A stretch of 33,693 nucleotides of DNA, from assembly GCA_938023075.1 (NCBI GenBank), contig CALHDG010000124.1:1-33693 (forward strand), written 5' to 3'. This stretch comes from an uncultured Chitinophagales bacterium. GTDB taxonomy: Bacteria; Bacteroidota; Bacteroidia; Chitinophagales; JAHDHT01. Positions 6,660 to 33,649 of the stretch are shown here, one piece after another. The first letter of the stretch is position 1; each line of letters opens with the position of its first letter. The notes under the pieces are model-generated. The model did not search any database. It worked only from the letters and a program-made list of their open reading frames with translations, and was not told the origin of the DNA. The position numbers and the translations under genes were made by a program.

Positions 6660-6789
6660 TACGAAGAACCAAAGCCGGCAAACTAGCCCCGATTGCAGCG
6701 GTTATTGCCTGGAGCTTGCGGAAGGCAATTTGAGCGGAAAGCGGGACTACCCTTTCTACAAGGCTACAACCGGTTCGCTTCAAAAAAAG
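6660..6789 (+). repeat. Structured dispersed repeat, copy 1 (in leader of CHU_C gene)
   Basis: The core runs from TAGCCCCGATTGCAGCGGTT (6684 onward) to TTGAGCGGAAAGCGGGA. A variable stem of ATTGCC (6704-6709) paired with GGCAAT (6724-6729) lies between. The flanks are ACGAAGAACC on the left and GGTTCGCTTCAAAAAAA on the right. It lies between the promoter and the likely start codon, so it would be transcribed. The ORF stays open through it by chance. Similar copies are at 11554, 21426 (minus), 21675 and 28322 (minus). Confidence 0.8.
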
Positions 6790-6804
6790 AAGATCAACTT
6801 TTTT

Positions 6805-8595
6805 TTGGCTCGGCTTAATGGCTTATTGATGATTGGCTTTTCTTTTTTTTGTTATTCGTTATTTGGGCAAAATAGTATTCAAGCTAATGCTGATTCTATT
6901 CAAATTAAAGAAGAACAAAGTATTGACATTAATGTATTACAAAACGATTCGATTGACCTGAATAACAACATCAGCTTAAGTATTGTTCAACCTCCATTTA
7001 AGGGTAGTGCTTTTTTGCACAATGGTATCCAAATCAGGTATTCGCCAACTTTTAATTTTTTTGGTTTAGATAGTTTGTTGTATGAAATTTGTGATGATCA
7101 GCTGGTTTGTGATTCGGCTTATGTACATATAAAGGTAACACCGGTAAACGATGCGCCTATTGCTATTGATGATATTATAGTGGCGGCAGAGGAGCAGGTA
7201 AGCACTTTTTATCCGAGCCGAAACGATATTGATGTGGATGCCGATAGCTTAACGATACAACTAGGCACAGCACCTAATCATGGTAATTTTGCCATAGGAG
7301 CCAATCAAAGTTTAGTGTATTTACCGGTCATCAATTTTATTGGTTGGGATACCTTAAGTTATTTTAGTTGTGATAGTTTGTTGCTTTGCGATGAAGCATT
7401 GGTATATATATTAGTAGAAGCAGTAAATGATGCGCCGACCATTTTAACCGAAACTTTTGAAACCGATATGGGTAAAGCCGTACAAATTAATCTAATTGAA
7501 AATGATGTGGATGAGGAGGGCAATTACATTATTTTAAGCATTGTAAACGGACCAAACAACGGTAGCCTTTCTGGCGATGTTCAACAGACCTTTACTTATA
7601 TGCCGGCAGTTAATTTTACAGGGATAGATTCCATTTTTTATGCCCTTTGTGATGATGGTTACCCGGTGGCTTGCGATACCGGTTTTGCCACCATTTATGT
7701 AAAAGGCAACCAACGCCCGGTAGCTATTAACGATACCATTTACGTAACCGATGTAGAAATGGGTGAAGTTTTGATCTTGCAAAATGACTTTGACCCGGAT
7801 AATCATCAACTTTTTTACGTATTAAATCATTTAATTAACCAAGAAACCGAATTGGGTAAGGTTTTTGATGAAGGACATGGCAGAATACGGTATAAAGCTA
7901 AACGAGCCTATAATGGGATGGACGAATTTACCTACACGTTGTTTGATGATGGAGGCTTACCGCAATTGAGCGATGAGGCATCTATAGTAGTGATTGCCAA
8001 TAAAACCAATTTACCACCGGTAGCCTTGGCAGATAGTGTTTGGATAGATCAGGCAGCTACCGTTCAATTTAACCTATTAGATAACGATAGCGACCCGGAA
8101 AATGATCCGTTGACATTTGAAATAATAACATATCCGAAAGGAGGCACACTCGATATTGATGACCATGGCAACCTCACCTATTCGGGTAATTATTTTTTTA
8201 GTGGCATAGACCAACTGACCTATCAATTGTGCGATTCTACAGATAATTGTGTGACTGCGCCTGTTTTGATAACCGTTAATGCTTTTAGTATTGAAGATTT
8301 ACTTGGAGCTATACCCAATACAATTACTCCAAACCATGATGGGAAAAATGACTTTTTTACCATTAGAAATATAACGAGTTACCCTAATAACAAGTTAAGC
8401 ATATTTAACCGGTGGGGGCAATTGGTTTACGAAACCACAAACTACCAAAATAACTGGAATGGACAAAGTTTAATTGGCTCAAAAAACAAGCCTGAAATGA
8501 GGGTTACGGACGGAACCTACTATTACATTTTAAGTATTACTACTCGTTTTAATGAGCTAAAACAACAAAGAGGATTCATACAAATAATGCAATAA
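6805..8595 (+). CDS. Multi-domain Ig/cadherin-like adhesin with T9SS type B (CHU_C) C-terminal domain
   Basis: The frame is open from TTG 6571, but that start sits in a promoter box and the next 70 codons run through a repeat element. I prefer TTG 6805, giving MARLNGLLMIGFSFFCYSLF then GQ, a good signal peptide; ATG 6829 is the alternative. The mature part holds about five tandem repeats of the Ig/cadherin-like type, each with an ND motif (VNDAPIAIDD, LIENDVDEEGN, LLDNDSDPENDPL). The last ~94 residues are a gliding-motility-associated C-terminal domain (IPNTITPNHDGKNDFF, LSIFNRWGQLVYE, WNGQ, DGTYYYIL). This domain directs export through the type IX system. The protein is probably a secreted or surface adhesin. 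A PorE-like T9SS gene follows on the same strand. Confidence 0.88.
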   Translation: MARLNGLLMIGFSFFCYSLFGQNSIQANADSIQIKEEQSIDINVLQNDSIDLNNNISLSIVQPPFKGSAFLHNGIQIRYSPTFNFFGLDSLLYEICDDQLVCDSAYVHIKVTPVNDAPIAIDDIIVAAEEQVSTFYPSRNDIDVDADSLTIQLGTAPNHGNFAIGANQSLVYLPVINFIGWDTLSYFSCDSLLLCDEALVYILVEAVNDAPTILTETFETDMGKAVQINLIENDVDEEGNYIILSIVNGPNNGSLSGDVQQTFTYMPAVNFTGIDSIFYALCDDGYPVACDTGFATIYVKGNQRPVAINDTIYVTDVEMGEVLILQNDFDPDNHQLFYVLNHLINQETELGKVFDEGHGRIRYKAKRAYNGMDEFTYTLFDDGGLPQLSDEASIVVIANKTNLPPVALADSVWIDQAATVQFNLLDNDSDPENDPLTFEIITYPKGGTLDIDDHGNLTYSGNYFFSGIDQLTYQLCDSTDNCVTAPVLITVNAFSIEDLLGAIPNTITPNHDGKNDFFTIRNITSYPNNKLSIFNRWGQLVYETTNYQNNWNGQSLIGSKNKPEMRVTDGTYYYILSITTRFNELKQQRGFIQIMQ

Positions 8596-30532: not shown

Positions 30533-30605
<73 letters not shown>

Positions 30606-30613
30606 CAAAGTAT

Positions 30614-31518: not shown

Positions 31519-31594
31519 CCCCCTTTCAAAACCCTTTTTAAAAAAGGCTCGAAAAACTGCCATAAATCCAGTGTGTATGCGGCTTGTAGAAGAA
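31519..31594. repeat. 76-bp direct repeat, unit B
   Basis: This is the second copy of unit A in the same orientation. The duplication explains the self-similar minus-strand frame at 31377-31631, which I reject as a gene. The DNA between the units shows nothing recognisable. Confidence 0.85.
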
Positions 31595-31970: not shown

Positions 31971-33464
31971 ATGAGTTGGATTCAATTTAACATAGTACCC
32001 GTAGAAGATTCTATTGATTTAATAATTGATGCTTTAAGGAAAGAATTTAGTATAAGTGATGAAGATATAATTGAGCTTGAAGCTAAAATTTATGGACTAT
32101 TTGAAGAATTAATTGACACCCTTTATGTTGTTATTGAAACTCCTTATGTAGACAAATTTTACAGAGATAGTTATTACACTTACTTTGCTTCAAAACATAA
32201 AGAATATAAACGAGACTGTATTAGATTGTCATTATTTCAAGATGGAATAACACAAGATCATTTTAGAAATGTGGACTTGTTTAAACAGTTACAAAAATAC
32301 TTTTTGGGTTATATCATTCTTAGACCAACTGTTCCAAATATTATTGGAAGATCAATCATAAGCCGGCATTGTTTAAAAGATAAAAACATGCTTATCTGTT
32401 CATATAAATCTAACATACTTATAAATGGTGTTAAACTTGAAATAGATGGATTTCCGCATAGCTCACAAGATGGTGAAAGTATTACCTGTGCGGAAACTAC
32501 TATTTGGGGTTTAATGGAATACTTTGGAAATCGCTATCCCGATTATAGACCAATAGCAATATCGGGAATTATCGAAGTGCTATCAAAATATTCTAAAAAA
32601 AGAATGCTCCCGTCAAGTGGGTTAACTGTTGACCAAATAAGCTACGCTATAAAAGAGTTTGGTTTTGGAACATATATTTATTCAAGAGAAGGTGCTTATG
32701 AAGATAAAATTGAGCAAGTTATAAGCATATATATTGAAAGTGGCATACCAGTACTTGCTGTACTTGAAAATGATGAGTTAGCGCATGCCATTCTTGTTGT
32801 AGGCTATGAAAAAGAGGCTCAAATTGATTTTAATACTCAAACCAAAAGAACGCTAAGTTTTTCAGATGAAGATGTAACGTACATTGATTATTCAGATGTA
32901 GAAAGAAAATATGTAATACAGGATGATAATTTGAAGCCACTTAGAAAAATATTACTATCTAAACCCGATAAGCCATATTTAGATGTAGAGCAAGAAGAAT
33001 GGAAAGATGTAAAAATAGATTCTATTGTTGTTCCATTATATAAGCGAATATATTTAGAAGCTGAAATGGCAAAACAGTTAGCTCTTAATGTGCTAAATGA
33101 TGCCGATTTAGGTTATAAATTTGAACCTGATTTTATCTTTCGATTTTACTTAACATCAAGTAGATCATTTAAATATCATATAGCTAAGTTAGATGATATT
33201 GAGGGAAAAATAGCCGATGAACTAATTTTACAAAGGATGCCAAAATTTATTTGGGTAGCAGAAATTTACAAAAAAGATGATTATAAAAGGAATTTAGCAA
33301 GCGGATTGATTGTTATAGATGCTACGGAGGCAAGAGAAAATGTTAAAGATGCAGTATTGACTGGACTTTATCCTGATAGGTGCATTTTTAAAAGTGGCAG
33401 AGATTTTGTAGTTTTATCGCAAGAATTTAAAAATTATTATAGATTTCAAAACAATCTTAATTGA
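31971..33464 (+). CDS. Papain/C39-like cysteine peptidase-type protein
   Basis: The 497-aa protein has no signal peptide. Residues 166-176 read QDGESITCAET, with Gln166 and Cys173 placed like the oxyanion Gln and nucleophile of papain-fold enzymes. GIPVLAVLENDELAHAILVV supplies His272, and YVIQDDNLKP supplies Asp318 or Asp319. The order Q-C-H-D is that of C39-like and papain-like hydrolases. The N-terminal ~160 residues are helical and end in FLGYIILRPTVPNIIGRSII. The C-terminal ~170 residues form an unknown domain (FIFRFYLTSSRSFKYHIAKL, FIWVAEIYKKDDYKRNLASG). Without a signal it should be cytoplasmic. Its TGA overlaps the TTG start of a small basic protein. Peptidase activity and target are inferred only. 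Confidence 0.65.
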   Translation: MSWIQFNIVPVEDSIDLIIDALRKEFSISDEDIIELEAKIYGLFEELIDTLYVVIETPYVDKFYRDSYYTYFASKHKEYKRDCIRLSLFQDGITQDHFRNVDLFKQLQKYFLGYIILRPTVPNIIGRSIISRHCLKDKNMLICSYKSNILINGVKLEIDGFPHSSQDGESITCAETTIWGLMEYFGNRYPDYRPIAISGIIEVLSKYSKKRMLPSSGLTVDQISYAIKEFGFGTYIYSREGAYEDKIEQVISIYIESGIPVLAVLENDELAHAILVVGYEKEAQIDFNTQTKRTLSFSDEDVTYIDYSDVERKYVIQDDNLKPLRKILLSKPDKPYLDVEQEEWKDVKIDSIVVPLYKRIYLEAEMAKQLALNVLNDADLGYKFEPDFIFRFYLTSSRSFKYHIAKLDDIEGKIADELILQRMPKFIWVAEIYKKDDYKRNLASGLIVIDATEARENVKDAVLTGLYPDRCIFKSGRDFVVLSQEFKNYYRFQNNLN

Positions 33465-33649
33465 GTAAAAGAAAAACATATCACATTAAATCAGCTTCAA
33501 AATCAGCAACATATACCAAAATTTCTGCTGATAAAGTTTCCTCATTTAATAGCAGAGCTTCTGCTGCTATGAAGGTAGCAAACCGGGATTTTAGAAAAAA
33601 ACAAAAGGTGTCTGCTAAAAAAGCATCAAATATTGTTTTAAATGCCTAA
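33461..33649 (+). CDS. Small lysine- and serine-rich protein paired with the peptidase-like gene
   Basis: The 62-aa frame starts with TTG at 33461, which overlaps the upstream TGA (TTGA), a coupled arrangement. The product is strongly basic with about 13 Lys and many Ser and Ala, has no Cys, and shows no membrane segment or leader (SKRKTYHIKSASKSATYTKI, FRKKQKVSAKKASNIVLNA). It could be a substrate, partner or nucleic-acid binder of the peptidase-like protein. I do not recognise it. The start and reality rest on the coupling and its composition. Confidence 0.5.
   Translation: MSKRKTYHIKSASKSATYTKISADKVSSFNSRASAAMKVANRDFRKKQKVSAKKASNIVLNA

What the first reader, a model, noticed from the sequence alone, without database searches (positions are those of the whole stretch)
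31971..33649. Two-gene cassette: cytoplasmic papain/C39-like protein plus tiny basic protein
The 497-aa protein has an apparent Q-C-H-D catalytic set but no signal, ABC transporter or secretion partner, and large unknown N- and C-terminal domains. A 62-aa Lys-rich protein is coupled by a TTGA overlap. The pair lies in tRNA-adjacent accessory DNA. Peptidase-small protein pairs can act as defence, toxin or peptide-modification modules, but which applies is not shown.
Basis: inference. Interest (0 to 1): 0.6.

Follow-up and report, generated by a model that had tools for sequence, protein, structure and literature searches.

The report
Defence-island cysteine protease plus small partner
This is a mobile two-gene cassette, found in about 3% of sampled related genomes and on a few plasmids, that encodes a cytoplasmic papain-type cutting enzyme together with a ~60-residue partner that probably keeps it in check, and it sits so often among anti-virus genes that it is likely an undescribed bacterial defence or toxin module.

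Summary
The 497-aa ORF (31971-33464) is predicted with high confidence (pLDDT 89, pTM 0.91) to contain a papain/C39-fold cysteine peptidase. Gln166, Cys173, His272 and Asp319 are invariant in all 25 aligned homologues, many only ~20% identical. The 62-aa ORF is real: a small gene is coupled to the protease in 25 of 26 assessable loci, on the 3' side in the window's clade and on the 5' side in the two other clades, under purifying selection where testable. What is conserved in the small protein is not basic charge (net +14 to -16) but a hydrophobic pair at positions -3/-4 from the C-terminus. Neither protein matches a Pfam, NCBIfam or PADLOC family above cut-off. The cassette is sporadic (about 3% of sampled Bacteroidota genomes; also proteobacterial plasmids). 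It lies next to restriction systems, an RT_III-A reverse transcriptase, Mokosh, PARIS/AbiL-like genes, caspases or, in 7 of 26 loci, bacterial ubiquitin-like conjugation genes. Best explanation: a cytoplasmic cysteine protease held by a co-encoded small regulator (inhibitor/antitoxin), serving phage defence. Fold, residues, linkage and context were computed here; inhibition, trigger, substrate and defence activity are inferred.

The parts
31971..33464 (+). 497-aa cytoplasmic papain/C39-fold cysteine peptidase with N- and C-terminal domains of unknown family
   Evidence: ORF; AF2 pLDDT 89.2, pTM 0.91; Foldseek prob 1.00 to staphopain, the ComA/PCAT1 C39 domains and phytochelatin synthase, 0.99 to ZUP1
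32466..32468 (+). codon of Gln166, predicted oxyanion-hole residue
   Evidence: invariant in 25 homologues
32487..32489 (+). codon of Cys173, predicted nucleophile at the N-terminus of helix 173-188
   Evidence: invariant in 25 homologues; helix position
32784..32786 (+). codon of His272, predicted catalytic base at the start of strand 271-280
   Evidence: invariant in 25 homologues
32925..32927 (+). codon of Asp319, predicted third catalytic residue (Asp318 is also invariant)
   Evidence: invariant in 25 homologues
33461..33464 (+). TTGA overlap: stop of the protease gene and start of the small gene
   Evidence: sequence; junctions compared in 9 further loci
33461..33649 (+). 62-aa small partner, predicted mainly helical
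   Evidence: conserved partner gene in 25 of 26 assessable loci; purifying selection in orthologues; alignment A2; helix in the L004 pair model
33632..33646 (+). C-terminal IVLNA of the small partner: the conserved hydrophobic -3/-4 signature

Best explanation
The cassette encodes a cytoplasmic papain/C39-fold cysteine endopeptidase and its dedicated small regulator. The small protein is a helix with a short C-terminal tail (hydrophobic at -3/-4). It binds the protease, most likely with the tail in or near the active-site cleft, and keeps it inactive like an antitoxin or a staphostatin/Spi-type inhibitor. During phage infection the restraint is lost or reversed, and the protease cuts host or phage proteins, stopping phage growth or the cell. 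Computed here: fold, catalytic residues, near-obligate linkage, selection, C-terminal signature, mobility, defence-island context. Inferred: direct binding, inhibition, trigger, substrate and anti-phage outcome.
For: Papain fold at high confidence, with catalytic residues invariant at about 20% identity, so an active enzyme is under selection. A partner gene is present in 25 of 26 assessable loci, 3' in one clade and 5' in the two others, which fits a functional unit better than an accident of gene order. The small ORF is under purifying selection: L018/L020 dN 0.07, dS 0.77; L018/L019 0.29, 1.66. Hydrophobic residues at -3/-4 from the C-terminus: 14 and 12 of 19 non-redundant proteins against 5 expected, 0 of 5000 shuffles jointly; defined on clade I and tested on clades II+III, 16 of 5000. 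No secretion signal. Sporadic presence (11 of 395 and 12 of 395 genomes), plasmid carriage, low GC, a tree that does not follow the genomes. Defence genes next door: type I RM (L021, 5e-164), RT_III-A (L022, 2e-162), MkoA (L052, 2e-134), AbiLi/AriA (L069, 1e-77), caspases (L004, L032), HipA-like/PDC-M66 (L023), C5 methylase plus ATPase (L020), ubiquitin-like systems (7 loci). Precedent: papain-fold staphopain and SpeB are juxtaposed with genes for small specific inhibitors, and Bacteroides C10 proteases are co-transcribed with staphostatin-like ones on mobile elements (PMC2873492).
Against: No binding, inhibition or toxicity was measured. The AF2 model of the natural in-frame pair in L004 gave a low-confidence small protein (pLDDT about 50-72), and no coordinates could be inspected, so the interface is not shown. 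Defence islands collect passengers, so context does not prove function. One homologue (L053) has no recognisable small gene. An activator or a substrate would explain the linkage equally well. PADLOC has no model for either protein, and no paper describing the pair was found in the held library.
Confidence: 0.5

Rival explanations
1. Protease-substrate effector pair: the protease is the infection-activated enzyme and the small protein is its substrate. Cleavage releases or activates a peptide that does the harm or signals onward.
For: Near-obligate pairing, two gene orders, and a constrained C-terminus that could be a released peptide or a docking site. Other bacterial conflict systems pair peptidases with dedicated partner proteins (PMC7159879).
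Against: No conserved internal cleavage-like motif: apart from the C-terminus the small proteins of the three clades are not alignable. None has a TM or toxin-like hydrophobic segment.
Confidence: 0.2
2. Deconjugating or maturing peptidase of bacterial ubiquitin-like systems: the papain-fold enzyme cuts the Ubl made by neighbouring multiubiquitin/ThiF genes, and the small protein is an adaptor or inhibitor.
For: 7 of 26 loci sit beside Ubl-conjugation genes, in at least four separate branches of the tree; about 0.004 Multi_ubiq neighbours expected by chance (from 13 of 247 genomes). Foldseek hits include the deubiquitinases ZUP1 and, for the L004 model, Josephin-2.
Against: 19 of 26 loci show no such genes nearby, and the window's own genome has no Multi_ubiq match. 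Orientation varies (convergent, divergent, tandem), which suits two modules better than one operon. L066 already carries a JAB peptidase domain.
Confidence: 0.12
3. Plasmid or island addiction module: a toxin-antitoxin pair with a protease as toxin, kept for its own maintenance and not selected for defence.
For: Two-gene unit, small partner, sporadic distribution, plasmids and mobile elements.
Against: Most loci found are on genome contigs beside many kinds of defence gene. Antitoxins of type II systems usually carry a DNA-binding domain, and none was found.
Confidence: 0.1
4. Peptide-maturation cassette: a C39-like enzyme trims the small precursor peptide for export as a bacteriocin or signal.
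For: Structural similarity to C39 domains of ComA and PCAT1; adjacent small peptide gene.
Against: No ABC transporter, no double-glycine leader, no signal in either protein. The conserved part is the C-terminus.
Confidence: 0.04

Closest known systems
Staphopain-staphostatin pairs (C47 enzymes with co-encoded inhibitors)
   Same: Papain-fold cysteine peptidase (Foldseek E 6e-4 to 4e-3, prob 0.99-1.00) encoded beside a small dedicated protein.
   Different: Staphopains are secreted and staphostatins are lipocalin-like proteins of about 110 aa (PMC2873492; size and secretion from general knowledge). Here both proteins lack secretion signals, the partner is ~60 aa and predicted helical, and the context is defence islands.
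SpeB-Spi and Bacteroides Bfp-Bfi (peptidase family C10)
   Same: Papain-fold protease juxtaposed with, and in Bacteroides co-transcribed with, small inhibitor genes; Bacteroides examples are on mobile elements (PMC2873492). A weak C10 profile match (E 0.1).
   Different: C10 enzymes are secreted zymogens. The match here is below cut-off, there is no signal peptide, and the partner has no Pfam match to known inhibitors.
Peptidase_C39_2 (PF13529) and C39 domains of ComA/PCAT1
   Same: Same fold and the same Q-C-H-D set. One member matches PF13529 at E 4e-5 and three at E<1; Foldseek prob 1.00.
   Different: The window protein does not reach the Pfam cut-off (12.4 vs 24 bits). It has large extra N- and C-domains, no ABC transporter, and a dedicated small partner.
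Caspase/trypsin peptidases with dedicated partner genes in bacterial conflict systems (PMC7159879)
   Same: Peptidase plus dedicated partner gene in defence contexts. The caspase and alpha/beta-hydrolase pair that the paper describes appears to lie next to the Flavobacterium cassette (L004; the hydrolase is by inspection).
   Different: A different peptidase fold (papain, not caspase or trypsin) and an unrelated, much smaller partner.

Membership tests
Papain-like fold cysteine peptidase (clan CA) | Papain fold with Cys at the N-terminus of the central helix, His on the following beta-sheet | tested here: met
   AF2 pTM 0.91; helix begins at C173, H272 on strand 271-280; Foldseek prob 1.00 to papain-fold enzymes
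Papain-like fold cysteine peptidase (clan CA) | Gln (oxyanion), Cys, His, Asp/Asn conserved | tested here: met
   Q166, C173, H272, D319 invariant in 25 homologues
Papain-like fold cysteine peptidase (clan CA) | Proteolytic activity | not testable with these tools
   needs purified protein
Pfam Peptidase_C39_2 (PF13529) | Match above the curated cut-off | tested here: not met
   window protein 12.4 bits vs cut-off 24; best member E 4e-5
Peptidase C10 (SpeB) | Match above the curated cut-off | tested here: not met
   13.3 bits vs cut-off 26
Peptidase C10 (SpeB) | Secreted enzyme with signal peptide | tested here: not met
   no N-terminal hydrophobic segment
Staphopain-staphostatin type pair | Adjacent small gene conserved with the protease gene | tested here: met
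   25 of 26 assessable loci
Staphopain-staphostatin type pair | Partner has the lipocalin-like beta-barrel fold of about 110 aa | tested here: not met
   52-76 aa, predicted mostly helical in the pair model (low confidence)
Staphopain-staphostatin type pair | Partner binds and inhibits the protease | not testable with these tools
   no interface could be read from the model
Known anti-phage system (PADLOC v2) | Protein matches a PADLOC model | tested here: not met
Known anti-phage system (PADLOC v2) | Located among defence genes | tested here: met
   (homologous loci; the window contig ends too early to test its own downstream side)
Type II toxin-antitoxin system | Toxicity alone, neutralised by the partner | not testable with these tools
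   needs expression assay
Type II toxin-antitoxin system | Antitoxin with a DNA-binding domain for autoregulation | tested here: not met
   no Pfam domain in the small proteins; some loci instead have a separate HTH gene upstream (L048-L051)
Deubiquitinase-like enzyme of bacterial Ubl systems | Constant linkage to Ubl/E1 genes | tested here: not met
   7 of 26 loci only; no Multi_ubiq in the window genome
Double-glycine bacteriocin maturation peptidase | ABC transporter and GG-leader substrate | tested here: not met
   neither seen

The most novel reading that the evidence does not exclude
An undescribed anti-phage system in which a cytoplasmic papain-fold protease is gated by a ~60-aa helical partner whose C-terminal tail occupies the active site, and which in several lineages works with bacterial ubiquitin-like conjugation, either reading or removing the modifier. 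That would be a prokaryotic papain-fold protease and Ubl partnership, which a 2006 survey thought possible from phage tail proteins but could not show (PMC1779556).
Probability: 0.2. Interest if true: 0.78.

Novelty: new variant of a known kind. Interest (0 to 1): 0.57.

Why it matters
If right, it adds a papain-fold, cytoplasmic protease to the short list of bacterial immune proteases, with a minimal 60-residue regulator that makes release and inhibition directly testable. Its repeated placement next to multiubiquitin/ThiF operons offers a way to ask whether papain-type proteases met ubiquitin-like signalling in bacteria before eukaryotes. It also gives a name and a test to a group of proteins now annotated only as hypothetical.

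Tried and rejected
Family scans gave nothing above cut-off for the window proteins in Pfam, NCBIfam or PADLOC. Profile search against PDB sequences found no relative. No homologue in phages or in viral contigs by peptide patterns; profile-based viral search was impossible because no stretch was conserved enough. The 44-bit DNA match on contig C237 is not a second small gene; the frame is unrelated. The G296 hit (2.5e-4, with a stop) did not recur in the profile search and was dropped. I suspected that the N- and C-terminal domains are a duplication because of a similar order of strands and helices; hhalign gave probability 0.2%, so rejected. Pair modelling through the in-frame L004 genes gave a low-confidence helix and no readable interface; alignments with more small-protein rows misaligned them. 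'Basic DNA-binding partner' was rejected because charge is not conserved. Peptide-maturation reading: see rivals.

Full report
THE OBSERVATION. The window is a whole contig and ends 44 bases after the small gene, so the downstream side cannot be read. The nearest upstream landmark is tRNA-Met at 30533-30606. The cassette is poorer in GC than the rest of the contig (30.3% vs 36.1%; GC3 18.5% vs 29-37% in three upstream genes), as expected of imported DNA.

THE LARGE PROTEIN. Family libraries fall short: Peptidase_C10 E 0.1 and Peptidase_C39_2 E 0.24, both far below cut-off, and nothing in NCBIfam or PADLOC. Homologues were found in Flavobacterium sp. Sd200 (42%), in genomes of the same phylum, as a paralogue in the window's own genome (contig C143), and on plasmids of Mesorhizobium, Shewanella, Pseudomonas and Hymenobacter. 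In an alignment of 25, Gln166, Cys173, His272, Asp318 and Asp319 are invariant, as are residues outside the peptidase core such as Glu56, Arg85, Trp428 and Asp450. AlphaFold2 with 21 sequences gave pLDDT 89.2 and pTM 0.91, with Cys173 at the start of a helix and His272 at the start of a strand. Foldseek against the PDB returned papain-fold enzymes almost exclusively at the top: staphopains, the C39 domains of ComA and PCAT1, phytochelatin synthase, ZUP1; an independent lower-quality model of the Flavobacterium orthologue gave SpeB and Josephin-2. Only the core is matched. The N-terminal ~150 and C-terminal ~170 residues have no recognised family, and they are not detectably a duplication of each other.

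THE SMALL PROTEIN. Every close homologue (12 of 12) is followed by a 61-76 aa ORF, overlapping the protease gene by a few bases in several. Of 14 assessable distant homologues, 13 are instead preceded by a 52-71 aa ORF (L053 is the exception); four of these are annotated as CDS in plasmid records. Two more homologues are cut by contig ends and were not counted. The tree puts the 3' arrangement in one clade and the 5' arrangement in two others. Nei-Gojobori dN/dS is about 0.1-0.2 for comparable pairs, so the ORF is coding and constrained. The small proteins of different clades hardly align, but anchored at the C-terminus they share hydrophobic residues at -3 and -4: 14 and 12 of 19 non-redundant proteins against 5 expected, none of 5000 shuffles jointly. 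The rule was read from clade I and then tested on clades II and III, where 16 of 5000 shuffles reach the observed sum. Net charge ranges from +14 (window) to -16 (L024), so 'basic' is a local property. None has a long hydrophobic segment.

CONTEXT. The cassette is sporadic: 11 of 395 genomes drawn from the phylum and 12 of 395 of the class (the weakest, G179 at 9e-4, is doubtful). Neighbours named by profile search or annotation: type I restriction (L021), an RT_III-A reverse transcriptase with PRTase-CE, NA37 and an effector-type endonuclease on the same strand (L022), MkoA of Mokosh plus a PLD-domain protein (L052), AbiLi/AriA (L069), C5 cytosine methylase with an ATPase (L020), caspase (L004, L032), HipA-like/PDC-M66 (L023). 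Seven of 26 loci adjoin ubiquitin-like conjugation genes: Multi_ubiq with ThiF and in four of five DUF6527-type genes (L030, L033, L049, L050, L066), ThiF (L026), and a DUF7665 operon whose other members look like JAB and E1 proteins by eye but had no Pfam match (L051). DUF6527 itself was confirmed only in L033 (annotation) and L049 (Pfam); in L050 and L066 it is by similarity of the sequences. Multi_ubiq occurs in 13 of 247 class genomes, so about 0.004 such neighbours would be expected by chance among 26 loci. The Ubl neighbours occur in at least four separate branches. Clustering of defence genes in islands explains part of this, and the orientation varies, so I read it as association between modules and not as one operon.

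MECHANISM. The computed facts are: an active-looking cytoplasmic papain-fold enzyme; a near-obligate, fast-evolving small partner, whichever side it is encoded on; a constrained free C-terminus on that partner; mobility; defence-island context. Known papain-fold proteases that would harm their own cell are juxtaposed with small inhibitor genes: SpeB with Spi, staphopain with staphostatin, and Bacteroides C10 proteases with co-transcribed staphostatin-like proteins on mobile elements (PMC2873492). I therefore think it most likely that the small protein restrains the protease, perhaps with its C-terminal tail in the cleft, and that phage infection lifts the restraint. That the partner is an activator or a substrate is not excluded. 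The pair model offered no readable interface to decide.

NOVELTY. A protease with a co-encoded small regulator is a known kind of arrangement; a cytoplasmic papain-fold version with a ~60-aa helical partner in defence islands is not in PADLOC v2 or the curated family libraries, and literature searches found no description. The library holds open-licence papers only, so an earlier description elsewhere is possible. I file it as a new variant of a known kind.

Noticed in passing
L003/L025 (window genome contig C143, about 6694-8328 +): The window's own genome carries a second, distant member (25% identity) with its small gene upstream: two clades of the family in one genome.
   Followed up: yes
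L022:6993-15781 (-): A run of same-strand genes: effector-type endonuclease, NA37, PRTase-CE, RT_III-A reverse transcriptase, a 212-aa unknown, then the protease pair. The pair may belong to this RT locus or only sit behind it.
   Followed up: partly
L051:2860-6200: A DUF7665 operon with HTH regulator, and proteins that look by eye like a Ubl, JAB and E1 but have no Pfam match, divergent from the protease pair; possibly an undescribed Ubl-conjugation operon.
   Followed up: no
L048-L051, L066: HTH genes, in L066 with an IrrE-type (Peptidase_M78) gene and in L049/L050 with an apparently similar one, lie upstream of or near the pair; they may control expression.
   Followed up: partly
L032:4580-11581: A caspase gene and a DEAD helicase with its own N-terminal caspase domain flank the protease pair on a Hymenobacter plasmid.
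   Followed up: no
window:31357-31432 and 31519-31594: Two 76-nt direct repeats (92% identical, 162 nt apart) in the non-coding stretch between tRNA-Met and the cassette.
   Followed up: no
window:31649-31882 (-) and L067:5936-6085 (+): Small Cys/His-rich ORFs lie just upstream of the protease gene in both loci, in opposite orientations; similarity may be chance.
   Followed up: no
model md60091ccec8e (window 497-aa protein): Three low-probability Foldseek matches (prob 0.03-0.06) are DNA sliding clamps; probably noise, but the N- and C-terminal domains remain unassigned.
   Followed up: no
L069:308-1999 (-): In G810 the protease gene is broken (split in two frames; could be an assembly error) while the small gene is intact.
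   Followed up: no
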